From Nissabacter sp. SGAir0207 (lineage in GTDB: Bacteria > Pseudomonadota > Gammaproteobacteria > Enterobacterales > Enterobacteriaceae), in assembly GCF_005491205.1 (NCBI RefSeq), contig NZ_CP028038.1:55785-119784 (forward strand): 64,000 nt of DNA, given 5' to 3'. The notes under the pieces were generated by a model. It was not told the origin of the DNA, ran no database searches, and was given only the letters and a program-made list of their open reading frames with translations. Positions 1 to 16,127 of the stretch are shown piece after piece (the stretch's first letter is position 1; each line of letters starts with the position of its first letter). The position numbers and the translations under genes are program-made.

Positions 1-2320
1 TCGTGTAAGCCTCGGCTCTGTACTCCTTTCAACTCCGGTCAAGCCTGGAGATACCGTCACTTCATCAGATATCCAGGAAACCGTTAGGTCCTTGTTCGCG
101 ACCGGAAACTTTGAGGACATCCAGATTCTTGAAGATAACTCAGATCTGATTATCAAGGTAAAAGAACGACCAACCGTGGCATCATTGAGTTTTAGCGGTA
201 ATAAAGCCATTAAAAATGACATGCTGGAGAAAAATCTCGACGCGCAGGGTGTCAGAGTCGGTGAGTCGCTGGATAATACTAACATCGTAAAAATTGAAAA
301 AGAGCTTGAGGACTTTTACTACAGCGTTGGTAAATACTCAGCAAGTGTAAAAGCAGTTGTTACTCCCCTTCCCCGGAATAGGGTTGATTTAAGATTTGAG
401 TTTCAGGAAGGCACTTCTGCCCTGATTAAACAGATCAACATAATAGGCAATAAAAGCTTCAAGAGTGATGAACTCATCTCACTTTTATCCCTACGTGATT
501 CTTTACCATGGTGGAACGTAGCTGGTGATAAAAAATACCAGAAACAAAAGTTAGCCGGAGATTTGGAGACACTAAGAAGCTTTTATCTTGATCAGGGATA
601 TGCAAAATTTGCCATAACTTCTACGCAGGTATCCCTGACGCCGGATAAAAAGAATATTTATATCACAGTAAATATCAATGAGGGTGGAAGATATAAGTTT
701 TCTCAGGTTAGCCTTGATGGCGATTTTGCAGGATACGAAAGTAATATTCGCAGGCTTAACACAATTAAATCTGGCGAGTATTATAGCCAGAAAAAAATTA
801 CAGACATGGAAAAACAGATTCGGGATGAACTCAGCAAGCATGGTTATGCCTATCCTCAGGTCGTAACCGAGCCTCGATTCGATAAAAGCGGAGACGCGGT
901 GGCATTGGCCGTTCACGTCTCCGCCGGTAAACGTTTCTATGTCCGTGGCGTCCGTTTTACTGGTAATGATATAACCAGCGATAGAGTGCTTAGACGTGAA
1001 ATGCGTCAGACCGAAGGGGGATGGCTTGAAAGTGATAAAGTTGAGCAGGGTCGCCAGCGTCTGAGCCGAACCGGTTATTTCGAGAACGTAGAAGTCGATA
1101 CGCAGCGCGTACCAGGTAGCAGCGATCAGGTTGATTTGGTCTACAAAGTAAAAGAACGCAACACGGGTTCGTTTAACTTTGGTCTGGGCTATGGCACTGA
1201 CAGTGGTATCAGTTATCAGGTCAGTGTCAGTCAGGATAACTGGCTTGGCACAGGTAATACCGTCAGCTTCTCAGGCGTAAAAAACAGCTATCAATCTTAT
1301 ATAGATATTGCTGGCACAGACCCTTATTTCACCGTTGATGGTGTTAGCCTCGGTGGCCGCCTGTTTTATAACAACTATAAAGCAGACAAAAATTACCTCT
1401 CTGAATATAAACAGACTTCTTACGGAACAGGTCTGACCCTTGGATTCCCTGTCAGCGAAAACAGCAGGCTAAACTCTGGTCTGGATTTTGTTCATAACTC
1501 CCTTTCTGATATGCGACCTCAGGTAGCCACATGGAACTATTTGAAAGGCCAGGGGGTACTGCCGTCCGTTTCACCTGGTGACGAGCACAATAAGGCCGAA
1601 ACTCAGGCCAATGATTTCCTGTTCACCTTGGGATGGAATTACAACACCCTTGATCGCGGATTTTTCCCTACTGCTGGCACTCTTTTTAATACCAGCGCAA
1701 AGGTTACGGTACCGGGGTCAGATAATGAATATTACAAGTTAAGTGCAGATTACAGCCGTTACAGTCCATTAACTGACGATCATGACTGGGTTCTTATGAC
1801 CAGAGCGCGCGTAGGCTACTCTGCTGGCCTGGGCGGTAAGCAAGTACCTTTCTATGATACTTTCCGTGCCGGTGGATCCAGTTCAGTCAGGGGATTTTCT
1901 TCAAACAGCATTGGTCCGAAGGCTGCATATTACGACTGCTCAGGAACAGAAACGGACTACAGTCAGTGTAGCGTTAAGAACTCTGACGATGCAGTTGGCG
2001 GAAATGTCATGACTACGGCGAGTGTGGAGCTTATTTTCCCGACACCATTTGTCGGAAATCGCTACGCAGACGCTCTAAGAACATCCGTTTTCATGGATGC
2101 AGGTACCGTATGGGATACTTCATGGAAAAACACTCCTGCTACCGAAATGGCAGGCATTCCTGATTACAGTAAACCCGGCGATTTCCGCTTGTCTGCAGGC
2201 ATATCGCTTCAGTGGCAGTCTCCACTTGGCCCACTGGTATTCTCTTACGCCTTGCCTCTTAAAAAGTTTAGCGGAGACCGCACCGAACAGTTCCAGTTCA
2301 ACATTGGTAAGACGTTCTAA
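1..2320 (+). CDS. bamA: BamA-family outer membrane assembly protein (5' partial, plasmid-type paralogue)
   Basis: The open frame runs in from the left edge (codons from base 2), so the signal peptide and start of POTRA1 are missing; the TTG at 92 is not a real start. BamA is the outer-membrane beta-barrel that folds and inserts other barrel proteins with the BamBCDE lipoproteins. Visible landmarks are the POTRA repeats, the PWWN and [16 protein letters not shown] stretches of POTRA2/3, the [12 protein letters not shown] linker into the barrel, the loop-6 VRGF motif with two cysteines just after it, and a C-terminal [10 protein letters not shown] ending in Phe. Length and order match chromosomal BamA, but barrel loops and POTRA4-5 differ clearly from E. 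coli BamA, so I infer a divergent extra copy rather than the housekeeping gene. It is followed by a stem-loop, so it is probably transcribed apart from the two-component genes. Confidence 0.9.
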
Positions 2321-2511: not shown

Positions 2512-3213
2512 ATGACTCATCAACAGCTCACTGTGCTGGTTGCCGAAGATGACCCGGCCATAACTAAAATCGTCACTGCCTATCTTGAAAAGGACGGCTT
2601 CAGTGTTTTGACGGCGGAGAATGGAGAACAGGCGTTAACAATGTTCAGTCAGCATCTGCCTGGGTTTGTGATTTTAGATATCAACATGCCTAAAAAAAAT
2701 GGCTGGGAAGTCCTTTCCGCAATTAAGAAAATCAGTGACGTGCCTGTACTGATGTTAACGGCGCTGGATACGGACATCGATAAGGTTTTTGCCTTGCGCA
2801 CGGGAGCTGACGATTATGTGGTGAAACCCTTTAATCCTTCAGAGCTTCTGGCGCGAGTACACGTTATTCTCAGGAGAATGAATCATTACCACCTAAATGA
2901 CAGCCTGATGGTTTATAAAACAAAAAATATTGAAGTGAATGTCAGTGAGCACCAGGTATTTATTGGTGAGTCCATGCATGACATCTCGGGTTATCTGACA
3001 ACAACTGAATTCCGGGTTCTTTTGCATCTTATTCGTTTTCCAAAACGGGTATTCACTCGCAGGGAACTTATGGAAGCTTGCCTTCCCGAGGGGGAGGTAA
3101 ATGATAGAACAGTGGATAGTCATATCAGCAAGCTAAGGAAAAAACTCGATGCGGCGGGTCTTAAGTTTGTTCCTGAGAGCATACGGGGCTTCGGCTACAG
3201 GCTTGGAGATTAA
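2512..3213 (+). CDS. OmpR/PhoB-type response regulator, AdeR-like
   Basis: Transcription factor of a two-component system. The receiver domain has the acidic pair E12/D13, the phospho-acceptor D56 in LDINMP, and the switch lysine in VVKPF; the C-terminal winged helix ends with TVDSHISKLRKKL and IRGFGYRLGD. The stretch MLTALDTDIDKVFALR followed by GADDYVVKPFNP is strikingly close to Acinetobacter AdeR and less like E. coli BaeR. The ATG at 2512 fits the family N-terminus and has GGGAG 6 nt upstream; an ATG at 2449 with GAGG is an alternative that adds 21 residues. It ends two bases before the histidine kinase, so the two form an operon. Targets are not visible; the neighbouring bamA copy and arn operon are candidates by position only. 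Confidence 0.85.
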   Translation: MTHQQLTVLVAEDDPAITKIVTAYLEKDGFSVLTAENGEQALTMFSQHLPGFVILDINMPKKNGWEVLSAIKKISDVPVLMLTALDTDIDKVFALRTGADDYVVKPFNPSELLARVHVILRRMNHYHLNDSLMVYKTKNIEVNVSEHQVFIGESMHDISGYLTTTEFRVLLHLIRFPKRVFTRRELMEACLPEGEVNDRTVDSHISKLRKKLDAAGLKFVPESIRGFGYRLGD

Positions 3214-3214
3214 T

Positions 3215-4270
3215 ATGAGAAAAATTTCCAGGAAGAGCCTGACGCGCAGGCTGTCTGATATGACAGCCTTTATTGCATTCATGGCCCTTATACTTTCCAC
3301 ACTGGTGTATTACGTTGCTGCACTAATATTTCCCTCTACGACCGACGGTGAATCACTAATACCCAGCCTGAACGATACGTTGCAGTTGATTTTTTCTACT
3401 CTTCTCGCTGTTGCATTTTCGATGTACTGCTCATGGCGATTTGCGCAAAACCTTATCAGGCCATTAAAAACAATTGCCTTCAGCGCAAGGGAGATTGCTG
3501 AGGGAAATCTAGCCTCACGCGCAGATCATTCAGGCATTTATTTTACTGAGCTTAATGATTTAATAGATGATTTTAATGTGATGGCTTCCAGACTGGAAGT
3601 TATGTCGAAAGACATGAAGCAGTGGAATGCGGCTATAGCGCATGAACTCAGGACTCCGGTCACGGTGTTAAAAGGTGGGGTACAGGCTATCTCTGAAGGA
3701 GTAATGCCTGCAGACACAGTAAATTTAGATGCATTAATGAAACAGATAGACGGGCTTTCCCTGCTTATTAACGATCTTCGTGTAGTGAGCCTCGCTGACT
3801 CTGGCCAGTTGATTTTGTACCGTGAAGAAGTTGATTTATATGAGGAAATTAAATCCGTTACTGCTCCGTTGATCCCCACATTCAGTCAAAAGAAAAAGAT
3901 CCTTGTAGTCAACGGATACCCTTTAACATGTTTCATTGACGCAGCGAGAATCAGGCAAGCCGTCCTTGCCTTGCTGAACAACTGCCTTGTTTATTCAAAT
4001 CCGGGAACTATATCCATCAGATGTGAACCAACATCTGATAAGCAACTTGTAATTTCGATTGAAGATGAAGGGCCTGGAATTCCAGCTAGTGAGCAGGAAA
4101 AAATCTTTGATATGTTTACGCGTGGCAGTAATGCCGCTGACGTAATCTCATCTTCAGGTCTCGGGCTATCGGTTGTCAGGGCCATAGTGCAGGCTCACGG
4201 TGGTAAGGTGACATGCCAGAATAATCGCTTAGGTGGTGCAAAGTTTACGATAACCCTCATCAACGCCTGA
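3215..4270 (+). CDS. Sensor histidine kinase, AdeS/BaeS-like
   Basis: Inner-membrane sensor kinase partner of the preceding regulator, 351 residues from the ATG at 3215, which lies one base after the regulator stop. Two membrane segments (about residues 17-42 and 55-80) flank a very short periplasmic part, then a HAMP segment (RPLKTIAFSAREIAEGNL), the H-box HELRTPVTVLKG, an N-box NNCLVYSNPG, the G1 box EDEGPGIP and the G2 box GLGLSVVRAIVQAHGG. All catalytic boxes look intact. The tiny periplasmic loop suggests sensing in or near the membrane, as for BaeS/AdeS-type kinases. Signal and regulon cannot be read from sequence. Confidence 0.85.
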   Translation: MRKISRKSLTRRLSDMTAFIAFMALILSTLVYYVAALIFPSTTDGESLIPSLNDTLQLIFSTLLAVAFSMYCSWRFAQNLIRPLKTIAFSAREIAEGNLASRADHSGIYFTELNDLIDDFNVMASRLEVMSKDMKQWNAAIAHELRTPVTVLKGGVQAISEGVMPADTVNLDALMKQIDGLSLLINDLRVVSLADSGQLILYREEVDLYEEIKSVTAPLIPTFSQKKKILVVNGYPLTCFIDAARIRQAVLALLNNCLVYSNPGTISIRCEPTSDKQLVISIEDEGPGIPASEQEKIFDMFTRGSNAADVISSSGLGLSVVRAIVQAHGGKVTCQNNRLGGAKFTITLINA

Positions 4271-4318
4271 GAATTTTCATTCCCCTCTTACTGAATTGCA
4301 GCTGAGGTTCCGAAACAG

Positions 4319-4342
4319 CGGTGGCGTAATAATATGCCACCG
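4319..4342. terminator. Hairpin between convergent kinase and arnF
   Basis: CGGTGGC and GCCACCG flank a 10-nt AT-rich loop in the gap between the converging kinase gene and arnF. No clear U-run on either side, so termination strength is uncertain. Confidence 0.35.
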
Positions 4343-4385
4343 TGAACCTTCCTTTAACTGCGCTGCAGGATTGTTCAACTTTATT

Positions 4386-4769
4386 TCAGCCATTCTGTTT
4401 TGCTTCATTTGGTGACTTCACGATCAGATAAACGCCTACAACGATCATCACTACACCAGGTAAACTGCCCCACTGAAAGCGTTCATGGTTTAAAGGCAGA
4501 ACCAGAGCAAATCCCCAAACCAGTATGTAACTCAGGCTCAGAACAGGATACGCACGGCTCAGAGGCAGGTGTCTCAGAGCTGTCATCCAGCAAATCATTG
4601 AAAGTAAGTACCCTGCCAAGCCGGTTACTAAAAGCAGCAATAGCGGTATCGACATTGCTGCCAGAGCCGACAAGGTAAATGCATGCAGCTGTGAGGCAGC
4701 ACCTCGCAACGCCAGTTGCGATGCGGTAACCAGTAATACGCTGCAAATAGCCCAGCAATACCCTCTCAT
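4386..4769 (-). CDS. arnF: Undecaprenyl-phosphate-L-Ara4N flippase subunit ArnF
   Basis: Last gene of the arn operon. ArnE and ArnF together are thought to flip undecaprenyl-phosphate-L-Ara4N across the inner membrane. The 127-residue protein has four predicted membrane helices and the EmrE/SMR-like pattern GYLLSMICWMTALRHLPLS-AYP-LSLSY-LVW that is diagnostic for ArnF. It starts two bases after the arnE stop, so it is translated from the same message. Length agrees with E. coli ArnF (128). Confidence 0.88.
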   Translation of the reverse strand: MRGYCWAICSVLLVTASQLALRGAASQLHAFTLSALAAMSIPLLLLLVTGLAGYLLSMICWMTALRHLPLSRAYPVLSLSYILVWGFALVLPLNHERFQWGSLPGVVMIVVGVYLIVKSPNEAKQNG

Positions 4770-4771
4770 TC

Positions 4772-5086
4772 TTAGCTCCCCATAACGATCACGCCTGAAA
4801 CAATCAGAAGCGTACCAATAATTTGCATACCGCTAAGTCGTTCACCCCATATCCAGCGCGCGCCCAGCGCAACAAAAATAAAGTTAAGGCTAAGCATTGG
4901 ATAAGCAACGCTAACAGGCATTTGTTGTAAAACGACCAGCCATAACAGCATGCCTATGCCAAGAATGATGACGCTGACAATCATCCAGAAAAGATAACCT
5001 CGCCTGTGAAGCTGAAGGGCAGCCTGTTTCTGGCACAGCTGCCCCATCGATGTGATTATGCATACCAGAATGACCAAACCCGTCAT
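4772..5086 (-). CDS. arnE: Undecaprenyl-phosphate-L-Ara4N flippase subunit ArnE
   Basis: Small SMR-like membrane protein of 104 residues with four helices and the conserved tail motif QMPVSVAYPMLSLNFIFVAL followed by GERLSG. It is the partner of ArnF. The ATG overlaps the arnT stop in an ATGA arrangement, which suggests translational coupling. Slightly shorter than E. coli ArnE (111) but without missing helices. Confidence 0.88.
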   Translation of the reverse strand: MTGLVILVCIITSMGQLCQKQAALQLHRRGYLFWMIVSVIILGIGMLLWLVVLQQMPVSVAYPMLSLNFIFVALGARWIWGERLSGMQIIGTLLIVSGVIVMGS

Positions 5087-6720
5087 GGCAGAGCACCATA
5101 GAATAAGTAGAGCATGCGTCCTTCGTGATAAGTTATTTCTGCCGGCGGCATATTCTTTGGCACTGACTCATCTTTGCCCAGCATTAACACTACGGAGATA
5201 TTACCATTCTTACGATGCTGCAAAATCCAATCAACGATCTGCGCATCGCTGATAAAGCGTTTTTTGTCATCGGGATAGCTGAGACCGTACTTTAGTTCGC
5301 CTTCCTGATGATAAAAATAGATATCGCTTCGCTCCATTCTCCAGGCGATAGCCGACCCCACGCCAGTGCTGTTGGTGGCGATATAGCGACTTTCTCCCAG
5401 ATTGCTTGCTATATGTTCAATAAACCTTCCAGGCCGTTTGGTGTTACTTATGCCGTCTGGTATCGCATAACCGAGCCCCAAGGCAAGAACCAGTGGACAG
5501 AAGGCTGCTCTAAGCCAGTTTCCGTTTAATGACAATAAACCTGCTAAAGCCCATCCCATAAATATCAGCGCTGCCATCAACACCTTACTTATCTCTTGAG
5601 GGGCATATATAGGCTTATGGGCTATTCCCCATGGTGCAATTATAAAAAGTACAGCCAGGGCAGCCATTGAGCCAAACCCAATATTAATCCAGGCATTGAT
5701 TTTCAGCGTGCGACTTTTGGTCCGGGCAAGCTCAACACCGTACTGAGCCATCAGCATAGCCATTGGAGCAAAACAGGGAAGGATGTACGTGGGCAACTTT
5801 CCTTTAGCAATGCTGAAAAATACTAAGGGAATTATTGCCCAGCTCAATAAATAGGTATTTGCAGAAGATTGACAGCCTTTCCTAATGGCGCCAGGGAGTA
5901 ATGCCAGCCATGGAAGCGATCCTGCCAGCAGTATAGGCAGGTAGTACCAGAAGGGAGCTTTATGCTGGGCATTATCTTCTGCGAAGCGTTGGATATGTTC
6001 AACCCAGAAAAAGTAATTCCAGAAATCAGGTTGCTCATGATGAATAGCGATAGCCCAAGGAGCACACGTTAGTCCGGCACTTATTACTGCAACAGGTCCG
6101 TATATCAGCAACTGCGTGAACCGTTTCTGCATAACCATCCAGGGGAAGATAACCAGAGCCGGAACGGCCAGCGCCAGAAATCCTTTGGTCATGAATCCGA
6201 GACCACAGAAAAAACCAAATAAAGCATATCGGCAGATGGCCTGGCGACGCCCCTGAGCTTCGGTTGCGAACCAATAGCTGCTCATTGCAGCTGTCATCCA
6301 CAATGTCAGCATCGGATCCAGCACAGCGTAAGTTCCTATGCCGTATACAAGCAAAGAGGTCAAATAGATGATAACTGCAGCAATTGCAGCATTCCGGGTC
6401 ATGCCGATGCGGGCAGAAAGCCAGTAGAGCATTAATGCACTGAGCATAGTGGAGAATACTGAGCCAAACCGCACCGCAAAGTTGCTGTGACCAAACAGCA
6501 ACTGACCTATATTATTGATCCAATATCCGCCAACAGGCTTCTCAAAATACCTCAGGTCAAAAAAATGAGGCGAAATCCAGCTGCCATGCTCTATCATCTC
6601 TCTGCTGATCTCGGCATAACGTGTTTCATCTGGCTGCCACAAGCCACGAAATTCAAGCGGCAGTAGATAGTAAAGAGCTAACAAACCAATCAGTAAGCAG
6701 GAGTTTTTCATCGCACTCAT
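5083..6720 (-). CDS. arnT: L-Ara4N lipid A transferase ArnT
   Basis: Inner-membrane glycosyltransferase (GT-C/PMT fold) that moves 4-amino-4-deoxy-L-arabinose from undecaprenyl phosphate to lipid A on the periplasmic side, lowering negative charge and polymyxin binding. Visible are the N-terminal [24 protein letters not shown] segment with its catalytic acidic residues, [15 protein letters not shown], and [18 protein letters not shown] in the later helices. The start at 6720 gives 545 residues (E. coli 550) and sits in an ATGA overlap with the arnD stop; an upstream in-frame ATG at 6753 would add 11 residues and is less likely. Confidence 0.93.
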
Positions 6721-7625
6721 CCCTGCGCCTCCTGACCTAACAGCTGCTGACATCCAAGCCAGCCTTCACGGCCTTCAATCTTTCCACGAACTATTTTACC
6801 TTTTGGCAGGGTATCCAGATTTTGAGGTAAAAGCTGGCTTAACGGTACAAACTGGATGCCATGCTGCTTAGCGCGCTGTAACAGTTGCCGAAACTGCTCC
6901 AGGCCTGAGATTCCCTCCACTTCAGCGTGAATCGTGTAAACAGGCACGCCCGGGTCATTGAGCATTCTTTCAAGAATGAAGCCGTTGTAGTCAGCAGCGC
7001 GAACCTTGCTGCCTACGACTTCATCCCATGTTGGAAGCGTAACGGGTATCTGCACAGTACCTGTCTGACCGTCTGGTAAAACGGGCAGGAAAGGCATCGT
7101 GCCGCGACAGTCACTGTTATAGTGAAAACCAAAGGATTGTTTGGCCTTAACGACACGGCCATCAGCACGCCAGCCTGCTACAGCTGAACAAGTTACAACT
7201 CTTTCAAGGATTTGGCTTAATGCATCAAATCCCTGCCATATTTGGTTATTAAGCTTGTCTGCCGACCACACGCCCGCCCAGGTTTGCCAGGCAAAGTGAT
7301 CCCAGGCGTGCAGACCGACTTCGTGATGGTCAGCGGTAGCACTAATGATCTCCCCAAGGCCGCGACCAATCTCGCGCCCTTGCCAGGCTGTACCTGCCAG
7401 TAAAATATCCCAGCCGTAGAGTGATGTTGCGCGTGAGCGCAGCATTTTCCACAAGAAGCGCGGTTTCATCAGGCGCCACAAGTGGCGCCCCATGTTATCC
7501 GGACCTACGCTAAAAAAATAACTGGCATGAATATCATATTCTTTCATGAGCTCAACCAGTGCAGGTACACCCCTAGAGGTTCCTCGCCAGGTATCGACAT
7601 CAACCCGAAGCCCTACGACTCTCAT
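6717..7625 (-). CDS. arnD: 4-deoxy-4-formamido-L-arabinose-phosphoundecaprenol deformylase ArnD
   Basis: NodB-type polysaccharide deacetylase fold that removes the formyl group from undecaprenyl-phosphate-L-Ara4FN, a step that drives the pathway forward. The N-terminal [10 protein letters not shown] carries the catalytic/metal aspartates and [14 protein letters not shown] the metal histidines; YTIHAEVEG near the end is also conserved. 302 residues, as in the family. It overlaps arnA by 4 nt upstream and arnT by 4 nt downstream. Confidence 0.92.
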
Positions 7626-9604
7626 TGTTCGGCATCCTGAAATTCAACCGAACGCAGGAAGAAATCCAGCGTGTTGTCGATCGTGGTATCCATCTCAATG
7701 GCCGGCGCCCAGTCCAGCAGGCGACGTGCATTTTTGATTGACGGTTTACGATGCTCAACGTCCTGGTACCCCTTTCCGTAATAGCTGCTGCTCTCTACTT
7801 CGCGGAAGCCTGCAAACGGCGGGAATTGGTCGCGCAGCGGATGACGTTCAAAGCTTGCCAGCAGGCGTTCAGCCAGCTCTTTGATGCTCGCCTCGTTTTC
7901 CGGGTTGCCGATGTTGACGATCTGGCCGTCACAGTTGCTGTTTTTGTTCTCAATGATGCGGAACAACGCTTCGATACCATCGCGAATGTCAGTGAAGCAA
8001 CGCTTCTGTGCACCACCGTCGATCAACTTGATCGGCGAACCTTCAACCAGATTGAGGATCAGTTGGGTGATTGCACGGGAGCTACCAATACGCGCAGCGT
8101 TCAGGTTATCGAGACGCGGGCCCATCCAGTTGAAGGGACGGAACAGCGTGAAGCGCAGACCTTCTTTTTCGCCGTACGCCCAGATCACGCGGTCCAGCAG
8201 TTGTTTGGAAACCGAATAGATCCAGCGCTGTTTGTTGATCGGCCCCACCACCAGATTGGAGTGATCTTCATCGAAGTGTGTATCAGTGCACATGCCGTAC
8301 ACTTCTGAAGTGGATGGGAAGATGATGCGCTTTTTGTATTTTACGCAATCGCGGATGATCTTGAGGTTCTCTTCAAAATCGAGTTCGAACACGCGAAGCG
8401 GGTTGCGGGTGTATTCAATTGGCGTAGCAATCGCCACCAGTGGCAACACCACGTCACATTTTTTGATGTGGTACTCGATCCACTCTGAGTGAATGCTGAT
8501 ATCACCTTCAACAAAGTGGAAGCGCGGCTGATCGAGGAAACGGCTGATGGCATCGGTGCCAATATCCAGGCCGTAAACTTCAAAGTTGTCATCCCGCAGC
8601 AAACGTTCGGTCAAGTGGTTACCGATAAATCCGTTTACACCCAGAATCAACACACGTGTGCGACGTTTAACGGCTGCAACCGGCTGAGAGTACAACAGTG
8701 CGCCCGGCACCATTCCCAGGCTCTGCGCCAGCTGGCTGCCGTTCATATAGACGCCATTTTCACTTTGTCCGGTCACCACTTCCAGCGCGCCTTCTCCGCA
8801 GGCAATCAGGAAAGGTTCAACGGAAATCACTGTGCCTGGCTTGGCTTTTGGCGCATCAGCATGTACGCGCCCTTTCCACACCACAAACTTCACGGTGCCG
8901 GCGAAGGCAAATGCGCCCGGCCATGGTTCGGTGACCGCACGGACCAGGTTGTTGATTGACTGTGCAGATTGCTCCCACAGAATGCGGCCGTCTTCTGGAG
9001 TACGGCGGCCGACCACGGTAGCCTGGCTGTGATCCTGAGGAACTGCCGCAATTTCACCACGTTTCATCGCTGGCAGTGCCTGCTCCAGCAGTTGTTTAGC
9101 ACAGGCTGTCAGTTTGCGATGCAGAGTTAAGGCGTTGTCTTGTTCATCAATGGCGACACGTTGCTGTGCCACGATATCGCCCGCATCTGCGCGTTTCACC
9201 ATGCGGTGCAGTGTCACACCGGTTTCGGTCTCACCATTCACCAGTGCCCAGTTCAACGGTGCGCGCCCACGGTATTTAGGCAGCAGTGAACCGTGCAGGT
9301 TGAAAGCACCCAGACGGGCGCTGCTCAGGATGCTGTCGTTGAGCAGGTTGCGATAATAGAAGGAGAAAATGTAATCCGGCGCCATGGTTTTAATGCGATC
9401 GACCCACAGCGGATGGTTGGCATCTTCAGGCGCATACACCGGGATACCCTGCTCAGCCGCCAGACGGGCGACTGAACCAAAGAAGTGATTTTCGTTAGCA
9501 GAATCAGCGTGAGTAAAGATCGCACTGATTTCAAAACCCGCATTTAACAGCGCAGTAATACCTGCACAGCCCATATCGTGATAGGCGAAGACGATAGTTT
9601 TCAT
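7622..9604 (-). CDS. arnA: Bifunctional UDP-L-Ara4N formyltransferase / UDP-GlcA decarboxylase ArnA
   Basis: 660-residue two-domain cytoplasmic enzyme. Residues 1-300 are the formyltransferase with N102, H104 ([18 protein letters not shown]) and D140, the known catalytic trio. Residues 316-660 are the NAD-dependent UDP-glucuronate decarboxylase, with the [10 protein letters not shown] nucleotide fold, the SEVYGM and [11 protein letters not shown] (Tyr-x3-Lys) active-site motifs. Together they make UDP-Ara4O and formylate UDP-L-Ara4N, with ArnB acting between the two. Full length (E. coli 660). The start ATG overlaps the arnC stop (ATGA). A second, single-domain formyltransferase lies at 13933-14874. 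Confidence 0.95.
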
Positions 9605-10587
9605 TGCTCAATTTCCTGTACAGAGGAGGTATCTTTCTGCGAGTTAATAACACGTTGAATGAAGTAGCGCGGACGAGCGCGTACGTCGTTGTAAATTCGG
9701 CCGATGTATTCGCCGAGTAAGCCCATACCGATAAACTGCGCGCCGACAAAAATAAACAGCACCGCAAACAGCATGAACACCCCGTCTCCGGCCCAGTCGG
9801 CGCCGAGGAACAGACGCAACACAATCAGCACCAGTGAGAAGGCAAAACCGGCCAGCGCGATCAGGCTGCCGACGATACTCAGCAGGCGCAGTGGCGTGGT
9901 GGTCAGGCATGTCACCAGGTCGTACATCAGGTTAATCAGCTTCATAAAGCTGTACTTCGAGTCACCAAATTCACGCTCGGCATGGGCGACAGGCAGCTCG
10001 ATAGTGCGGCGCGCGAAGGTGTTCGCAAGGATAGGAATAAAAGTACTGCGCTCGTGACAGTTGAGCATGGCATCGACAATGTGACGGCGATAAGCACGTA
10101 ACATGCAGCCATAGTCACCCATCGCTTTACCGGTGACGCGTTGAATCAGCTGGTTAATGGTGCGGGAAGCGCGGCGACGGAACCAACTGTCCTGACGATT
10201 TTGACGCACAGTACCGACCACGTCATACCCCTGCTGAGCTGCTTGCACCAGATTGGGGATCTCTTCGGGTGGATTCTGCAAATCCGCATCCAGTGTGATA
10301 ATCAGGTCGCCTGATACATGGCTAAAACCCGCCATGATTGCCGAGTGTTGTCCATAGTTGCGGTTCAGCAATACGCCGACCACATGGCTGCCCGGCATAT
10401 CAGCGGCATCGGCGATCATCTCACCTGAGCGGTCGCTACTGCCGTCATCCACCAGCAAAATCTCATAATCGAGGTTCAGCACAGCACATGCCGCATCGGT
10501 GCGACGCACCAACTCTGGCAGGCTCTCCTCTTCGTTGTAAACCGGGATCACCACGGAGACTTTACGAATATCTTTTTCTTCGAGCAT
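9601..10587 (-). CDS. arnC: Undecaprenyl-phosphate 4-deoxy-4-formamido-L-arabinose transferase ArnC
   Basis: GT2 glycosyltransferase that transfers Ara4FN from UDP to undecaprenyl phosphate on the cytoplasmic face. It shows the [19 protein letters not shown] start, DDGSSD and [14 protein letters not shown] nucleotide/metal motifs, the [14 protein letters not shown] region and two C-terminal membrane helices (about residues 230-255 and 265-290). The ATG at 10587 is preferred: GGAG lies 10 nt upstream, whereas the TTG at 10596 would have no room for a ribosome site. It follows arnB within a few bases. Confidence 0.93.
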
Positions 10588-10592
10588 GTCAA

Positions 10593-11729
10593 TCAAACTC
10601 CAGCGATATGACGTAATGCGCCGATCACGCGGCTGACGTCGTCATTGCTCATATCTGGGAAAAGCGGTATTGAGCAGATGCGATCGCTATTCCATTCCGT
10701 GTTGGGCAGGGAAAGTTGCGGATAACGTTCGCGGTAATATTTGTGGGTATGTGCCGCGCGGAAATGCAAACCGGTGCCGATGTCTTCTGCTTTCAGCGTT
10801 TCCATCAGCGCGTCACGACTTAAACCGCAGGAGGCTTCATCGACTCGGATGATAAACAGATGCCAGGCATGTTGATGAGACCATTCAGGCTGAGCGAGTG
10901 GTAAGAAGGGTGTATCCGCCAGCTCGGTCAGATAACGCTGTGCAATCTCAGCACGACGCGTATTAATGGCAGCCAGCTTGTTTAACTGCACCAGCGCAAT
11001 CGCTGCGCTGATATCTGGCAAGTTGTATTTGAAACCCGGCATTACCACTTCAGCCTGCGGTTTGCGCCCGTAGGTATGGCGGTCATAGGCGTCCACACCC
11101 AAACCATGGAATTTCAGGCTGCGCATACGATCGGCAAGTTCAGCGTCGTCGGTGACGATCAAACCGCCCTCTGCACAGGTCATATTCTTGATGGCATGGA
11201 AGGAGAAAATGGCCGTACCTTGCTGGCCAACGTGCTGACCTTTGTAGTAACAACCTGCGGCATGCGCAGCATCTTCTATGACTGCAATGCCGTGGCGCTC
11301 GCCGATAGCGCGAATCGCATCAATATCTGCAGGAGCGCCGGCATAATGCACCGGAATAATGGCGCGGGTGCGAGGGGTAATCGCTGCTTCAATGTGCTCA
11401 GGGGTGACCATCAGCGTATCGCGATCAATATCAATCATCACCGGAGTAGCACCGAGCAAAGTGATCATATTTATGGTCGAGACCCAGGTCAGCGAAGGTG
11501 TGATCACTTCATCACCCGGCTGAATATTCAGTGCCATAAGTGCAACGTGCATACCCGCTGTGGCAGAGCTGACGGCAATCGCGTGCTGATTACCGGTGAG
11601 TTTACAGAACGCGGTTTCAAGTTCTGCATTTTGAGCCCCAGTCGTTATCCATCCTGAAGCAAATACTCGCTCAACGGCAACAAGCTCCTCTTCACCCAAC
11701 GATGGGCGTGAAAAAGGCAAAAAAGTCAT
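10593..11729 (-). CDS. arnB: UDP-4-amino-4-deoxy-L-arabinose aminotransferase ArnB
   Basis: First gene of the arn operon. PLP-dependent DegT/DnrJ/EryC1 family enzyme that transaminates UDP-Ara4O to UDP-L-Ara4N with glutamate. Visible are the PFSRPS start, [16 protein letters not shown] (cofactor phosphate region), [14 protein letters not shown] and [14 protein letters not shown] with the lysine that binds PLP. 378 residues, matching E. coli. An AAGG ribosome site precedes the ATG. The 250-nt gap upstream must carry the operon promoter; I looked for a PmrA box there and did not find a convincing one. Confidence 0.94.
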
Positions 11730-11982
11730 GAAAATCCTTACCTAAAATAAACTGTTAAAGTCTTTATCCGAAGCAATTCTGTTTCGATAAATTCGATGGT
11801 TTTAATTTAATGATCCTGACATTGTCGCCATAAAACATAAACGATTCCTAAACGTCTTTTCCTGACCAACAGGAATCCATGTAACTCTGCGACTAATTTT
11901 CATTTTGAAACAATTATTGTTTTTTGTTCTTAACAACACCTTCACACTGTAAAATCACTCAAAATGAATAAATTTTTTAATT

Positions 11983-13641
11983 TCAATGCGTCTTAAAAAC
12001 TTCATAAAACTCATCTTCCTCACCTGGCCTGCTCCCACTCCAGATGAGGTCATGAAAACTCTTTTTCTCTGTAGTTGTCTTACCTTGTCTTAGTAGGTAG
12101 TGACAGCTTTCATTTAAAGAACCATTTTCGACCCTGCTTGTCTTTATGCCGGTGTAATAATGAAGCATTGCCCTTTGCGGCTCGCCAAGTCCCTGACTAA
12201 TTACGCACTCGCCTTTAGGCACAATCATATTAATCTGACTAAAAACATCAGAATAACGTTTAGAATAATCAATTAAAGGAAGACCAAGAGTCATAATGAT
12301 TGACCATATAATTGTCATTAAACACGAAAAATAGAACACAGTAGGTGTTTTTGATGAGTCGGTTTTCATTATTACAATCAACACAGCAAGGGGAGCCGCA
12401 AGTGAAATAATTACAAGAAGTGGGTTAATATCTGAATCGTATCCTGGTACAAAATAGTTAACAAACTCCCTTAAAGGCGAAAATGCGAATGGAAGGTTAA
12501 CCAACAAGCCAATAAAGATAAGGAATAATATTAATGAAAAAGAAAGCCCCTTCAGGAAAGAGGAGAACGAAGGAATTACAGAAATTGGCACGGCTGCTGC
12601 CGCAATAACTGACAGTGGAAGTAATAATGGAAGCGCATACAGTTCACGCGCATCGCTTGAAAGGGAGAGTGTAAAAAAAGTTACCATAAAGAAGATCAGG
12701 CTTACACTGATACCATCCCGGAGAACTTTTCGGTTTTTGGTTAAAAAGTAAAGTAAGCACATCGGCAGCGCCGGGAAAGCATACCAGGATAGTGTATAAA
12801 GATAGAATAAATGCCCCTTTTTGGGACCCAGATTATTCGTACCCAGGAAGCGCCCCAGGTTGTTGTCCCAGAACCAGAGGTGCAGAAGTTCTGGGGAACG
12901 ATGCCATAGCGCTAAAATCCAGGGGAAAGAAAGCAGCATTGTTACAGCCAAAGCGATCAGAATCGAATTTATAAAGCTTTTTTTTCTGTAACTGCCTAAT
13001 ATAAATAAACAAAGCGCAGCGCTGAGATACAACAGGCCGGGCCCCAGAAGCCCTTTTGACATCATGCCAAGTGCTGCCCCGATCCCCATCACAACTCCAC
13101 CAGCTATGAAACGCCTGCGCGATAAAATGAGCCCGTATAAACCGAACGAGCATCCTGCTACTAAAGCAGTGTCGGTTATCATCTGGTGCATTCGGACAGC
13201 CACACCTAAGCAGGAAATAAAAATAAGTATTCCCCAACGGCCGTAACCCTTGCCCAGAGTATCTCTGACTGAAAGGGCAATCATTGAACTAGTTATAACT
13301 ATAAAAAAACCCGACGTTAAGCGAGCCGCATCTGGAAGAGATAATAAAGGATGTAGCAGGCCCATAAATACGGCAGCAACAATGTAATAGATCGGAGGCT
13401 TTTCCATGAACGGTTCACCCGCAAGCATAGGTACAACCCAGTCGCCGGTTTCATAAATGTTCAATATTAACCCAAATGAATAAGCTTCATCTGGCTTCCA
13501 TGGCTCATGACCTATAAGTCCGGGAATGGTCCAAAAAAACAAAAGTAGTGCCATGTAACTGAAATGTATATTTCCAAAAGAAAACGTCTTATTTTTTTGT
13601 TTTTCTTCTAAGTCAGAAGTAGATCTATTCTTAAACTGCAT
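11983..13641 (-). CDS. ArnT-like GT-C (PMT family) membrane glycosyltransferase
   Basis: Multi-pass inner-membrane protein, 552 residues from the ATG at 13641. An in-frame start at 13758 adds a basic 39-residue tail not expected in the family. It keeps the ArnT-type N-terminal core EPWKPDEAYSFGLILNI (acidic residue of the first periplasmic loop), then PFMEKPPIYYIVAAVF, and a hydrophobic helical bundle, but differs from the operon's arnT throughout. By family it would use a polyprenyl-phosphate-sugar donor. Donor and acceptor are unknown. It sits just upstream of arnB on the same strand, 254 nt away, and diverges from the stand-alone formyltransferase gene, so I infer a related sugar decoration. 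Its base composition is more AT-rich than arnB-F, a sign of separate origin. Confidence 0.75.
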   Translation of the reverse strand: MQFKNRSTSDLEEKQKNKTFSFGNIHFSYMALLLFFWTIPGLIGHEPWKPDEAYSFGLILNIYETGDWVVPMLAGEPFMEKPPIYYIVAAVFMGLLHPLLSLPDAARLTSGFFIVITSSMIALSVRDTLGKGYGRWGILIFISCLGVAVRMHQMITDTALVAGCSFGLYGLILSRRRFIAGGVVMGIGAALGMMSKGLLGPGLLYLSAALCLFILGSYRKKSFINSILIALAVTMLLSFPWILALWHRSPELLHLWFWDNNLGRFLGTNNLGPKKGHLFYLYTLSWYAFPALPMCLLYFLTKNRKVLRDGISVSLIFFMVTFFTLSLSSDARELYALPLLLPLSVIAAAAVPISVIPSFSSFLKGLSFSLILFLIFIGLLVNLPFAFSPLREFVNYFVPGYDSDINPLLVIISLAAPLAVLIVIMKTDSSKTPTVFYFSCLMTIIWSIIMTLGLPLIDYSKRYSDVFSQINMIVPKGECVISQGLGEPQRAMLHYYTGIKTSRVENGSLNESCHYLLRQGKTTTEKKSFHDLIWSGSRPGEEDEFYEVFKTH

Positions 13642-13865
13642 TTTAAGCGTTTTACAGGCCAAGCATGCAACATAATAACTGACTCTTAAACTATCGTTGT
13701 AAAATGCTCGAATTTTTCGATACTGCAACTTTCTTCTCCTGCTTACGAAGATAAACAAAAGCTCAATAGTATATCGAACTCCGTTATGAGTTTAGAAAGG
13801 AGTGTAGCTACTGGTATCAAGTGTTGCGATTGGATGGAAACGCGGTCTAGGGATACGATTTTATA

Positions 13866-13910
13866 TTGACATGTTCTTGCCGACCAATAGTATCAAAAGA
13901 CTTTTATAAT
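13866..13910 (+). promoter_or_regulatory. Candidate promoter for the formyltransferase gene
   Basis: A perfect TTGACA (13866-13871) is followed after 19 nt by TATCAA, and a perfect TATAAT lies at 13905-13910, 33 nt after TTGACA. Neither pairing has ideal spacing, so the exact promoter is uncertain, but the AT-rich stretch is the only plausible one before 13933. Confidence 0.35.
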
Positions 13911-13932
13911 CTTTTACAACATGAAGGTTTCA

Positions 13933-14874
13933 ATGAAAGCACCTCAAAAAGTCAAACCCACTGTTATATTATTCGGATACCATGATATGGGTTATGCTGG
14001 ACTATCCGCATTAATTAAAAGCGGCTATAATGTTGTTTCGGTTTTCACTCATAAGGATAGTAACAATGAAAATGTGTTTTTTAAATCTGTCACAGATCTC
14101 GCTGACAAACATAAAATCCCGGTCTTTCGGCCCGAGGATGTTAATGAACCCTCCTGGGTAATTAAAATAAATGATCTTTCTCCTGATTATATAATAACCC
14201 TTTCTTACAGGCATTATCTTTCGAATGAGATAGTTAAGGCTGCTAAATTCGGTGCGTATAACGTCCATGCATCTTTGCTTCCTGCACACAGAGGGCGCTC
14301 TCATCTTAACTGGTCAATAATTAAAGGTGATGAAGAAAGTGGAATTACTTTGCATGAAATAAATAATATTCCCGATGCTGGGCCGATTTATGCACAGACG
14401 AAAGTGTCCATTAGCAATGATGATACGGCGCATACTCTTCACAGGAAAATTACGGAACTTGCCAGTACACTCCTTCCGGTGTGGTTCACCGAACTCTATG
14501 AAGGGAATCTTACCGGACTTGATCAGGATGAGAGTCAGGCGAGCAGTTATGGTTTGCGAAGACCCGAGGATGGACATATCGACTGGCGTTCAAACGCAAA
14601 CGACATACGCAATCTGGTACGTGCCCTGTCCTTCCCATGGCCAGGGGCATTCACTGACTCTGAGGGGAAAAAACTCATCATCTGGAAATGCAACGTACTA
14701 CCCAGTGAACAGTCATTTATACCAGGAACTGTAATTTCCATTGCACCACTAAGGGTTGCATGTGGTAAGGACATACTTGAGATAGACGATTTCTCACTGA
14801 CAAAATGTCCTGAACCCGGTTATTCAAGAAAAATCACCGGGTCAGACATAATCGTGGGCATGATATTACGTTGA
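13933..14874 (+). CDS. Stand-alone formyltransferase resembling the ArnA N-terminal domain
   Basis: 313-residue cytoplasmic enzyme of the methionyl-tRNA/UDP-amino-sugar formyltransferase fold. The motif NVHASLLPAHRGRSHLNW carries the catalytic Asn110 and His112 and PDAG carries Asp148, matching N102/H104/D140 of ArnA. The C-terminal FMT domain (about 205-310) is present, but the decarboxylase half of ArnA is absent. The opening (ILFGYHDMGYAGLSAL, then SVFTHKDSNNEN) follows ArnA closely, so the substrate is probably a UDP-4-amino sugar rather than Met-tRNA. The ATG at 13933 is chosen because GAAGG lies 5 nt before it; the ATG at 13921 has no ribosome site. It diverges from the ArnT-like gene. 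Confidence 0.8.
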   Translation: MKAPQKVKPTVILFGYHDMGYAGLSALIKSGYNVVSVFTHKDSNNENVFFKSVTDLADKHKIPVFRPEDVNEPSWVIKINDLSPDYIITLSYRHYLSNEIVKAAKFGAYNVHASLLPAHRGRSHLNWSIIKGDEESGITLHEINNIPDAGPIYAQTKVSISNDDTAHTLHRKITELASTLLPVWFTELYEGNLTGLDQDESQASSYGLRRPEDGHIDWRSNANDIRNLVRALSFPWPGAFTDSEGKKLIIWKCNVLPSEQSFIPGTVISIAPLRVACGKDILEIDDFSLTKCPEPGYSRKITGSDIIVGMILR

Positions 14875-14906: not shown

Positions 14907-14992
14907 AGTGAATCGCCACGGATAATCTAGACACTTCCGAGCCATTGATAATAACGGTTTTCGTATTCTGCCGGTGGCAACTTGATGTACAA
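14907..14992 (-). mobile_element. Possible IS3-family end with transposase C-terminal remnant
   Basis: Read on the minus strand, the segment encodes a tail PPAEYENRYYQ ending at a TAG (14927-14929) and continues into a terminal-repeat-like end containing TGAATCGCCACGG on the plus strand. This is how IS3-type elements end (transposase tail abutting the inverted repeat). Only about 90 nt remain, with no other end in sight, so it is a scar. Confidence 0.45.
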
Positions 14993-15104: not shown

Positions 15105-16127
15105 TCACACCCGGTGCGCCCGCAGAAGCGATTCCGGGACAAAGTAAATATTACCGCGCGCTCGCGAACAGGCCACATAAAGCTTGTTACGAGATGAAGG
15201 GGGAAGTGCGTTCAGGGTACCTTCATTAAGACGACGCCAGTGGTCAATACCCAGCACGATACAGACGTCCTGGTAATGATCGAGACCCTTGCTCAGACCC
15301 CAGTTTATTGAATGACAGCCGTATCGGTGGTGCTCGCGATAAAAGAGCTTGATGACGCCTTGATCTGCGTGCAAAGCGGTTGCCCGTGCCGCATCGGTTA
15401 CGGTTTCAATCAGGGTTTCCCGTCGGATCTGTGCTTCGATCGGAATATTCAGATGCGTGGTGATAAAATTACAGACCGTTTCCGAGCAACGCCACGTTTT
15501 GCTGAGCGTATAATGGTCGGGCAGCACCCCGGCAGCGCGGAAATGGCTCTCATATCTGCCAATATTATCGTGTAGGGTCGCGTTGGTGTTACCGTCCCGG
15601 CTGGTGTCGAAAGTATGCTGGTAAAAATCTCCCGCCATCAGAATGGAGACGTTAGCCGCGCATAGCTCCATCAAAAAGTTAAAATCGTGACCAGCAAAAT
15701 CCTGTACTTCATCAATCAGCAACTGATCATAAAACCTAGCAAGCCTTGTGCGGATAGCAGGAAGCATTTCTTTCTGCATAAGCATCAGAGCAAGGCGGCG
15801 ATGGTAAAGCCTGCCACCAGAATCCTGAAAATGTCGCGGGTTGCTCCGAGGAACTCTCTGGGGCGGGTCGGAGAAACTTAAGCCCCGCGTACTGAGCTGC
15901 TGTTGCAGAAAGGGCCGACAGCAGAAGCCGTGCAGGAATTCAAACCATGTCATCACCCGGATCCCTTCCGGTACATAGCCAAATTTTCTGACGATCTGCG
16001 TGAGTAGATGCCTTTCATTATTATTTGTGTGTGCCAGAATCAAAGCGCGGCTATCTATCTGAAGCTGCTCCTTTAGCAAGGTGGTTTTGCCTGAGCCGGC
16101 CACGGCAAATACTACGCGCTTATCCAT
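15105..16127 (-). CDS. Short UvrD/Rep-like helicase, GajB-like
   Basis: 340-residue superfamily-1 ATPase. Motif I is AVAGSGKTT (8-16), motif II LLIDEVQDF (137-144), motif III AGDFYQHTFD, motif IV TWRCSETVCNF and motif VI YVACSRARGN, so the ATPase core is intact, but it is shorter than typical GajB (about 490) or UvrD and must lack most of the 1B/2B insertions. It starts inside the end of the upstream OLD-type nuclease gene (16-nt overlap), which implies coupled translation and joint function. In Gabija, GajB senses nucleotides/DNA ends and assists the nuclease GajA in anti-phage defence. Assignment to Gabija proper versus another class 2 OLD system is open. Confidence 0.75.
   Translation of the reverse strand: MDKRVVFAVAGSGKTTLLKEQLQIDSRALILAHTNNNERHLLTQIVRKFGYVPEGIRVMTWFEFLHGFCCRPFLQQQLSTRGLSFSDPPQRVPRSNPRHFQDSGGRLYHRRLALMLMQKEMLPAIRTRLARFYDQLLIDEVQDFAGHDFNFLMELCAANVSILMAGDFYQHTFDTSRDGNTNATLHDNIGRYESHFRAAGVLPDHYTLSKTWRCSETVCNFITTHLNIPIEAQIRRETLIETVTDAARATALHADQGVIKLFYREHHRYGCHSINWGLSKGLDHYQDVCIVLGIDHWRRLNEGTLNALPPSSRNKLYVACSRARGNIYFVPESLLRAHRV

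What the first reader, a model, noticed from the sequence alone, without database searches (positions are those of the whole stretch)
2512..14874. Envelope-modification island: AdeRS-like system, full arn operon, extra ArnT-like and formyltransferase genes
A complete, intact, tightly coupled arnBCADTEF operon next to a dedicated two-component system and two extra sugar-modification genes makes a self-contained lipid A remodelling cassette on a mobile-looking replicon. Plasmid spread of full arn operons is unusual; transferable polymyxin resistance is normally mcr-type.
Basis: partly seen in the sequence, partly recalled or inferred. Interest (0 to 1): 0.72.

Follow-up and report, generated by a model that had tools for sequence, protein, structure and literature searches.

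The report
Plasmid island with spare outer-membrane builder
A plasmid in a bacterium that is most likely a Chimaeribacter shares a 34-kilobase stretch with a Pantoea soli plasmid and carries there a complete arn operon, predicted to modify lipid A, beside a sensor-regulator gene pair and a second gene for the outer-membrane protein assembler BamA, which together would likely help the cell rebuild its surface under antibiotic-like attack.

Summary
In detail: a regulator/kinase pair, a complete arnBCADTEF operon, a second ArnT-like gene and a standalone formyltransferase gene lie at 2512-14874. Three things change its reading. (1) They belong to a ~34 kb block on a plasmid-like contig; the block recurs at 93-96% identity on a closed plasmid of Pantoea soli, another family. 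(2) arn genes on plasmids are ordinary in Pantoea, but the three other genomes held for this genus lack ArnA; here the plasmid supplies it. (3) The gene next to the regulator is a full-length second BamA (62-64% identical to the chromosomal one), with an RND pump, porin, LpxL/LpxP-type acyltransferase and RamA-like regulator beyond it. In a rooted tree the 13 copies known to be plasmid-borne, second copies or Klebsiella BamK fall in one clade (100/100), so BamK is unlikely to be a Klebsiella-only duplicate. In Klebsiella, mutations in the BaeSR two-component system switch bamK on, and BamK then replaces BamA. Most likely this island is a mobile, self-regulated counterpart: a spare BamA plus predicted Ara4N lipid A modification and efflux. 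Regulation and function are inferred; promoter evidence is weak.

The parts
1..2320 (+). bamA2, full-length second BamA (808 aa); its first 106 bp lie upstream of the window (contig C4 55678-58104)
   Evidence: NCBIfam BamA models PRK11067 1192.7 (cut-off 1181) and OM_YaeT 856.6 (297.15); full ORF; chromosomal copy at C1:775724
2512..3213 (+). response regulator, OmpR family, AdeR-like
   Evidence: P. soli annotates the corresponding start
3215..4270 (+). sensor histidine kinase, AdeS/BaeS-like, very short periplasmic loop as read from the sequence
4386..4769 (-). arnF
   Evidence: 103.6 vs cut-off 99
4772..5086 (-). arnE
   Evidence: 94.9 vs cut-off 92
5083..6753 (-). arnT
   Evidence: 767.8 vs cut-off 567
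6717..7625 (-). arnD
   Evidence: 515 vs cut-off 382
7622..9604 (-). arnA, the only full-length arnA found in this genome
   Evidence: 1260 vs cut-off 777
9601..10596 (-). arnC
   Evidence: 636.3 vs cut-off 529
10593..11729 (-). arnB, first gene of the operon
   Evidence: 727.7 vs cut-off 631
11898..11913 (-). candidate operator upstream of arnB (TTGTTTCAAAATGAAA); a similar element lies about 207 bp upstream of bamA2, outside the window
   Evidence: weak
11983..13758 (-). arnT2, second ArnT-like transferase; named relatives mostly betaproteobacterial
13921..14874 (+). standalone formyltransferase, homologous to the N-terminal domain of ArnA
14909..14982 (.). right edge of the shared block: 74-bp piece matching (88-89%) the end of P. 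soli IS3-family elements

Best explanation
This is a plasmid island, found in two bacterial families, in which a second full-length bamA and a complete arn operon lie on either side of a two-component system, and it likely works as an inducible outer-membrane rescue kit. Proposed mechanism: the short-loop kinase would sense membrane damage (cationic peptides or a similar envelope attack) and phosphorylate the adjacent OmpR-type regulator, which would raise bamA2 and arnB transcription, perhaps with the divergent RND pump. Arn proteins would cap lipid A phosphates with Ara4N and repel cationic peptides. BamA2 would take over or add to outer-membrane protein folding with a barrel and loops that differ from the chromosomal BamA. 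Shown here: gene content, presence in two families, purifying selection on the genes computed, and membership of BamA2 in the clade that holds Klebsiella BamK. Inferred: signal, regulon, BamA2 activity and resistance.
For: Gene content and order. Block of ~33.9 kb shared with P. soli at 93-96%. dN/dS between the two copies is low for the 14 genes computed, e.g. bamA2 0.065, RR 0.015, HK 0.052 (dS 0.41), arnA 0.071; highest FT2 0.331 on 13 differences. BamA2 keeps the BamA barrel, POTRA domains and VRGF motif. Plasmid-borne and second BamAs and Klebsiella BamK form one clade, 100/100. In Klebsiella, baeS mutations raise bamK expression >250-fold, and BamK then replaces BamA and gives resistance to a BamA-targeting macrocycle (PMC13059784). 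AdeRS-like pairs on the two Pantoea plasmids inspected sit next to an RND pump; here a pump lies on the other side of bamA2. No ArnA in the three other genomes of the genus. No strict PmrA or PhoP box in the island, which leaves room for another regulator.
Against: No expression data. The shared promoter element is weak: as a triple with the porin, 7 of 300 (k=20) and 3 of 300 (k=22) shuffles reach it; at k=18 the best triple is a different one (lpxP, bamA2, RR); as a bamA2/arnB pair 20-30 of 300 shuffles reach it; the porin site is not conserved in P. soli; it is not found upstream of two related pump/TCS loci. Accessory bamAs on eight other plasmid loci inspected are not next to a TCS or arn, so the linkage is seen in one island lineage only. 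The TCS fails the AdeRS and BaeSR cut-offs. dS between the two copies ranges from 0.029 (FT2) to 0.41 (HK), so a single undisturbed transfer of the whole block is not shown. P. soli reads arnT2 as two ORFs.
Confidence: 0.48

Rival explanations
1. Polymyxin/cationic-peptide resistance cassette only: arn plus the TCS is the unit, and bamA2 and the pump are neighbours by chance.
For: Complete arn operon, all seven genes above cut-off; the three other genomes of the genus lack ArnA; TCS adjacent to arn.
Against: bamA2, not arn, is co-directional with and immediately upstream of the TCS; arn is convergent with it. bamA2, pump and arn genes lie in one block shared with P. soli and the 14 genes computed are under purifying selection.
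Confidence: 0.2
2. Surface-disguise island: a different BamA, porin and lipid A head group mainly change receptors for phages, lectin-like bacteriocins or contact-dependent inhibition.
For: BamA extracellular loop L4 is 45% and L3 43% identical to the chromosomal copy; BamK does not support infection by a phage that uses E. coli BamA (PMC13059784 section 8); phage-defence genes (Gabija-like, CBASS-like) are on the same plasmid.
Against: L6 (71%) and L7 (62%) are hardly more diverged than the barrel (67%), and the own chromosomal BamA against E. coli BamA diverges as much in L4 (42%) and L7 (46%); K. pneumoniae BamA also failed as receptor in that phage test; it does not explain the pump and TCS.
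Confidence: 0.12
3. Composite cargo: unrelated envelope and sugar-acid genes collected by plasmid recombination, with no common control.
For: The block also holds sugar-acid catabolism genes and an IS piece lies at its edge; dS differs more than tenfold between genes; promoter evidence is weak; other accessory bamAs have unrelated neighbours.
Against: Envelope functions are concentrated: acyltransferase, porin, pump, bamA2, TCS, arn and arnT2 within about 24 kb.
Confidence: 0.2

Closest known systems
Klebsiella BamK with BaeSR (PMC13059784; abstract, introduction, discussion and result sections 7 and 8 read)
   Same: A BamA paralogue about 63% identical to BamA, tied to an envelope-stress two-component system; the copy I took as BamK is in the same accessory clade.
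   Different: BamK is reported as a core-genome gene of Klebsiella; here bamA2 is on a plasmid directly upstream of an AdeRS-like TCS, beside a pump and arn. My BamK row comes from a 550-kb linear record labelled plasmid and was identified by its annotation and distance from BamA, not by name.
arnBCADTEF of the P. soli megaplasmid NZ_CP032703
   Same: Same seven genes and order, plasmid-borne.
   Different: No TCS, bamA, arnT2 or formyltransferase in the 25 kb inspected.
AdeRS-like TCS with RND pump on Pantoea plasmids (two loci inspected)
   Same: RND adaptor and permease next to an AdeR/AdeS-like pair, kinase 39.6 and 39.8% identical.
   Different: There the pump and TCS are co-directional with no bamA; here bamA2 lies between them and the pump is divergent.
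Accessory bamA on Rahnella and Pantoea plasmids (eight loci inspected)
   Same: Same accessory BamA clade; in the three Rahnella loci also next to an RND pump.
   Different: No TCS or arn next to them in the stretches inspected (up to 8-12 kb on each side).

Membership tests
arnBCADTEF operon | seven arn genes in the order B-C-A-D-T-E-F, each above its NCBIfam cut-off | tested here: met
arnBCADTEF operon | adds Ara4N to lipid A | not testable with these tools
   needs lipid A mass spectrometry
BamA | POTRA repeats plus Omp85 barrel, NCBIfam BamA cut-offs | tested here: met
   PRK11067 1192.7 vs 1181; OM_YaeT 856.6 vs 297.15; Pfam POTRA and Omp85
BamA | folds outer-membrane proteins and can sustain growth | not testable with these tools
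   needs complementation of a BamA-depleted strain
BamK | falls in the same clade as Klebsiella BamK, apart from chromosomal BamAs | tested here: met
   23-row clade 100/100 in a 50-row rooted tree; AU tests, on groups named after seeing the tree, reject BamK with Klebsiella/E. coli BamA (p 1e-93) and the window copy with its genus's BamA (p 0.016)
BamK | Klebsiella core-genome gene | tested here: not met
   plasmid locus in another genus with different neighbours; so BamK-like, not BamK
AdeRS | AdeR and AdeS equivalog cut-offs | tested here: not met
   254.7 vs 340 and 249.3 vs 500; best matches nevertheless
BaeSR | BaeR and BaeS equivalog cut-offs | tested here: not met
   153.8 vs 380; 170.2 vs 500
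ArnT (for the gene at 11983-13758) | ArnT equivalog cut-off | tested here: not met
   63.6 vs 567; ArnT-like only
ArnA (for the gene at 13921-14874) | formyltransferase plus dehydrogenase domains | tested here: not met
   N-terminal domain only, 331.4 vs 777; N-x-H and DAG motifs align with ArnA (their catalytic role is recalled)

The most novel reading that the evidence does not exclude
There is an old, mobile lineage of spare BamA genes in the Enterobacterales, moving mainly on plasmids; Klebsiella BamK is a chromosomal settler of it, and this island is a self-regulated form that pairs the spare BamA with its own stress sensor, lipid A armour and efflux, so that an essential outer-membrane machine can be swapped by conjugation.
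Probability: 0.35. Interest if true: 0.8.

Novelty: new variant of a known kind. Interest (0 to 1): 0.57.

Why it matters
BamA is essential and a target of new antibacterial compounds (darobactin, dynobactin, macrocycles). The one described replacement, BamK, was reported as not described outside a restricted Klebsiella clade, and its biological relevance as an open question (PMC13059784, introduction). Plasmid-borne relatives, one of them next to a two-component system, mean that spare BamAs are wider spread, occur in several families and come with a candidate regulator, which gives a direct way to ask what signal they serve. It also shows a plasmid supplying the whole predicted Ara4N pathway in a genus whose three other sampled genomes lack ArnA.

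Tried and rejected
Misassembly of chromosome and plasmid: rejected, same block on a closed plasmid and rep/par/tra genes on the contig. Recent duplication of the own bamA: rejected, 62-64% identity and separate clade. PmrA, PhoP, CpxR, BaeR and mar boxes (consensus recalled): no strict PmrA, PhoP or BaeR match in the island; a loose PmrA half-pair lies 264 bp upstream of arnB inside the end of arnT2, one CpxR-like match lies inside the pump gene, and one of three mar-like matches lies inside the adaptor gene about 50 bp from its start; none was pursued. A common operator: only weak support. ArnT2 against solved structures: no match at 1e-3. The search for related loci with ArnT2 gave only 2 distant loci. 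AlphaFold2 model of BamA2: mean pLDDT 64.6, too poor for a fold search; used only for rough strand limits in the domain comparison. Darobactin sites: of the eight E. coli positions mutated in the three resistant sets named in PMC10476194 (passages read), BamA2 differs from its own chromosomal BamA at three (435, 443, 445) and matches at five; position 443 is changed only in this lineage (2 of 23 accessory, 0 of 25 chromosomal rows). This is an observation, not evidence of resistance. Literature: BamA+second copy+plasmid+Pantoea (0 papers), 'BamA paralog' (4), BamK+Klebsiella (4), arn operon+plasmid+Pantoea (1), darobactin+G443D (2), arnBCADTEF+plasmid-borne (57, 20 listed), Chimaeribacter+plasmid (7, 6 listed), bamA+megaplasmid+duplicate (4). 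In these listings (titles and starts of abstracts) I saw no plasmid-borne bamA island; apart from PMC13059784 and passages of PMC10476194 no paper was opened.
Full report
What is there. All seven Arn proteins pass their curated NCBIfam cut-offs. The regulator and kinase match AdeR and AdeS best, but below the cut-offs, so they are AdeRS-like, not AdeRS. The window is bases 55785-119784 of a 119,784-bp contig (C4) in a 5.03 Mb genome of 8 contigs. The contig encodes a Rep3 initiator, ParA- and ParB-like proteins, a TraD-like protein and a weak TrbI-like match below cut-off, so it is a plasmid, probably conjugative. No terminal overlap was found, so circularity is not shown.

Which organism. Of the three other genomes held for the genus, one has a BamA identical to that of Chimaeribacter californicus, and the BamAs of the other two are 98.8-99.9% identical to named Chimaeribacter BamAs; the own chromosomal BamA is 95.3% identical. 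The genus is therefore most likely Chimaeribacter (Yersiniaceae), and the species is not settled.

The island is larger and shared. Contig bases 36846-70730 align with bases 170741-204594 of the closed 275,665-bp plasmid of Pantoea soli DSM 32899 (Erwiniaceae): a 31-kb alignment at 95.7% and, overlapping its left end, a 4.3-kb one at 93.2%. Elsewhere, in the stretches compared, the two share only short pieces (an integrase region at 81-83%; five-hundred-base-scale pieces at 66-84%, mostly around SSB and PsiB-like genes). P. soli plasmid bases 1-129,999 and the last 3.8 kb were not fetched. At the right edge P. soli has an IS3-family element, and C4 keeps a 74-bp piece matching an IS end. Left of the window the block holds a lipid A acyltransferase of the LpxL/LpxP family (above cut-off), an OmpC/OmpF-like porin, an SMR transporter and a RamA-like regulator (these three below cut-offs), and an RND permease and adaptor (above subfamily cut-offs).

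A second BamA. The gene just upstream of the regulator, in the same direction, encodes an 808-residue BamA with POTRA repeats and barrel, above both BamA cut-offs. It is 62-64% identical to the chromosomal BamA of the same genome. The three other genomes of the genus have one BamA each. In a search of 5.8 billion proteins (120 best of 7269 listed) its nearest relative is the P. soli copy (99%), and the other 119 listed are 62-66% identical. In 392 genomes of the family, 314 had a match at E <= 1e-200, and 11 of these had two (at most two candidates per genome were scored). Four of those 11 were placed in the tree, and one copy of each is in the accessory clade.

Plasmid-borne bamA elsewhere. 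A protein search of 72,556 plasmid records gave 49 with a match at 1e-100. Several of these are chromosome-sized records filed as plasmids; Pantoea (10 records, P. soli included) and Rahnella (12) make up the large-plasmid cases. I inspected eight of these besides P. soli. None has arn or a TCS next to bamA; the three Rahnella loci have an RND pump next to it, and pPAT9B05 has lptE and glycosyltransferase family 9 genes nearby.

One accessory clade. In a tree of 50 BamAs that I chose, one clade of 23 rows has 100/100 support and is nested among 25 other ingroup rows, with 2 outgroup rows. It holds all 13 rows known beforehand as plasmid-borne (10, with the window and P. soli copies), as second copies in their genome (2) or as Klebsiella BamK (1), and 10 further proteins whose replicon I did not examine. 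The BamK row is identified by annotation next to iraM and its distance from BamA. AU tests, on groups named after seeing the tree, reject BamK grouping with Klebsiella/E. coli BamA (p 1e-93) and, less strongly, the window copy grouping with the BamA of its genus (p 0.016). Three columns separate all 23 from all 25 rows: E435D, F494Y and S at 664 (E. coli numbering checked); the split was taken from the tree. The window branch is long (about 1 change per column), so its place within the clade is unsure, and long-branch attraction is not fully excluded. This goes against the view given in PMC13059784 that BamK occurs only in a restricted clade and probably arose by duplication of an ancestral bamA there.

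Selection. Between the two island copies, dN/dS is 0.015-0.22 for 13 of the 14 genes computed and 0.33 for the formyltransferase (13 differences in all); arnE, arnF, arnT2 and the SMR gene were not computed. The kinase has dN/dS 0.052 at dS 0.41, so it is kept under constraint. dS ranges from 0.029 to 0.41 between genes, which points to recombination within the block and speaks against one undisturbed transfer. P. soli reads arnT2 as two ORFs.

Regulation. No strict PmrA, PhoP or BaeR box was found in the island. The best 20-22-bp element shared by three of eight upstream regions lies upstream of porin, bamA2 and arnB, at -189 to -209 from each start. Shuffles reach its score in 7 of 300 (k=20) or 3 of 300 (k=22); at k=18 another triple (lpxP, bamA2, RR) is best. 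A 16-base version occurs with at most one mismatch at two places in the genome, upstream of arnB and of the porin (reversed control: one), but the pattern was taken from these sites. P. soli keeps the bamA2 site inside a 33-bp fully conserved run (-210 to -178) in a diverging stretch, and keeps the arnB site, but not the porin site. As a bamA2/arnB pair the match is not significant (20-30 of 300 shuffles), and it is absent upstream of two related pump loci. I regard it as a lead only.

How it most likely works. In Klebsiella, baeS mutations raise bamK expression >250-fold, make bamA dispensable and give resistance to a BamA-targeting macrocycle (PMC13059784; abstract, introduction, discussion and result sections 7-8 read). 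The island has the same kinds of part in one place: a BamA paralogue, a TCS of the envelope type and an RND pump; AdeRS-like pairs on the two other Pantoea plasmids inspected sit beside an RND pump. Arn would add Ara4N; the three other genomes of the genus lack ArnA (best matches 26-28% to its formyltransferase half, presumably tRNA formyltransferases). My reading is an inducible rescue kit for the outer membrane. The signal, the regulon, BamA2 foldase activity and any resistance are inferred.

The extra sugar genes. Apart from itself, the second ArnT-like protein is nearest to a Pantoea sp. FN0307 protein (52%), then to unnamed and, among named sources, mostly betaproteobacterial ones (120 of 889 listed). 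Nine Mycetohabitans plasmid relatives (30.8-31.9%) are annotated as Ara4N-lipid A transferases. The standalone formyltransferase aligns with the ArnA N-terminal domain including the N-x-H and DAG motifs; after P. soli (98%) its nearest named relative is from Erwinia aphidicola (51%). They may place Ara4N or a formylated sugar on another acceptor; this is a guess.

Verdict. The surprise lies less in plasmid arn genes, common in Pantoea, than in a mobile spare BamA next to a two-component system. In checking, I corrected the description of the accessory clade and added the uneven dS; best-explanation confidence was lowered from 0.50 to 0.48 for that.

Noticed in passing
window 15105-17674 (-): Gabija-like pair next to the island: GajA-like (340 bits) and GajB-like (142 bits, short at 340 aa).
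   Followed up: partly
L047 12325-17054 (contig C4, left of the window): CBASS-like operon: SAVED-HNH effector, oligonucleotide cyclase, E1-E2 and JAB proteins, all with strong PADLOC matches.
   Followed up: partly
L067 and L068 (P. soli plasmid 130000-175000 and 222000-271900): The P. soli plasmid also carries genes usually chromosomal (thrS, cysS, hemB, dksA, folE2 near the zinc metallochaperone gene zigA; eno and a phosphoglycerate mutase beside the fluoride exporter crcB), so spare core genes may be a theme there.
   Followed up: no
L002 3267-5698: PQQ-dependent glucose dehydrogenase gene is read as two ORFs in this plasmid but as one in P. soli.
   Followed up: no
bamA2 5' leader, C4 55587-55677 (upstream of the window): The 91 bp before the bamA2 start are fully identical between the two island copies; possibly a regulatory leader, though the coding sequence is itself 98.7% identical.
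   Followed up: no
window 1-2320 (BamA2): BamA2 ends in F instead of the W seen in 25 of 25 chromosomal-clade rows; POTRA4 (39%) and POTRA1 (50%) are its most diverged POTRA domains against the own chromosomal BamA.
   Followed up: partly
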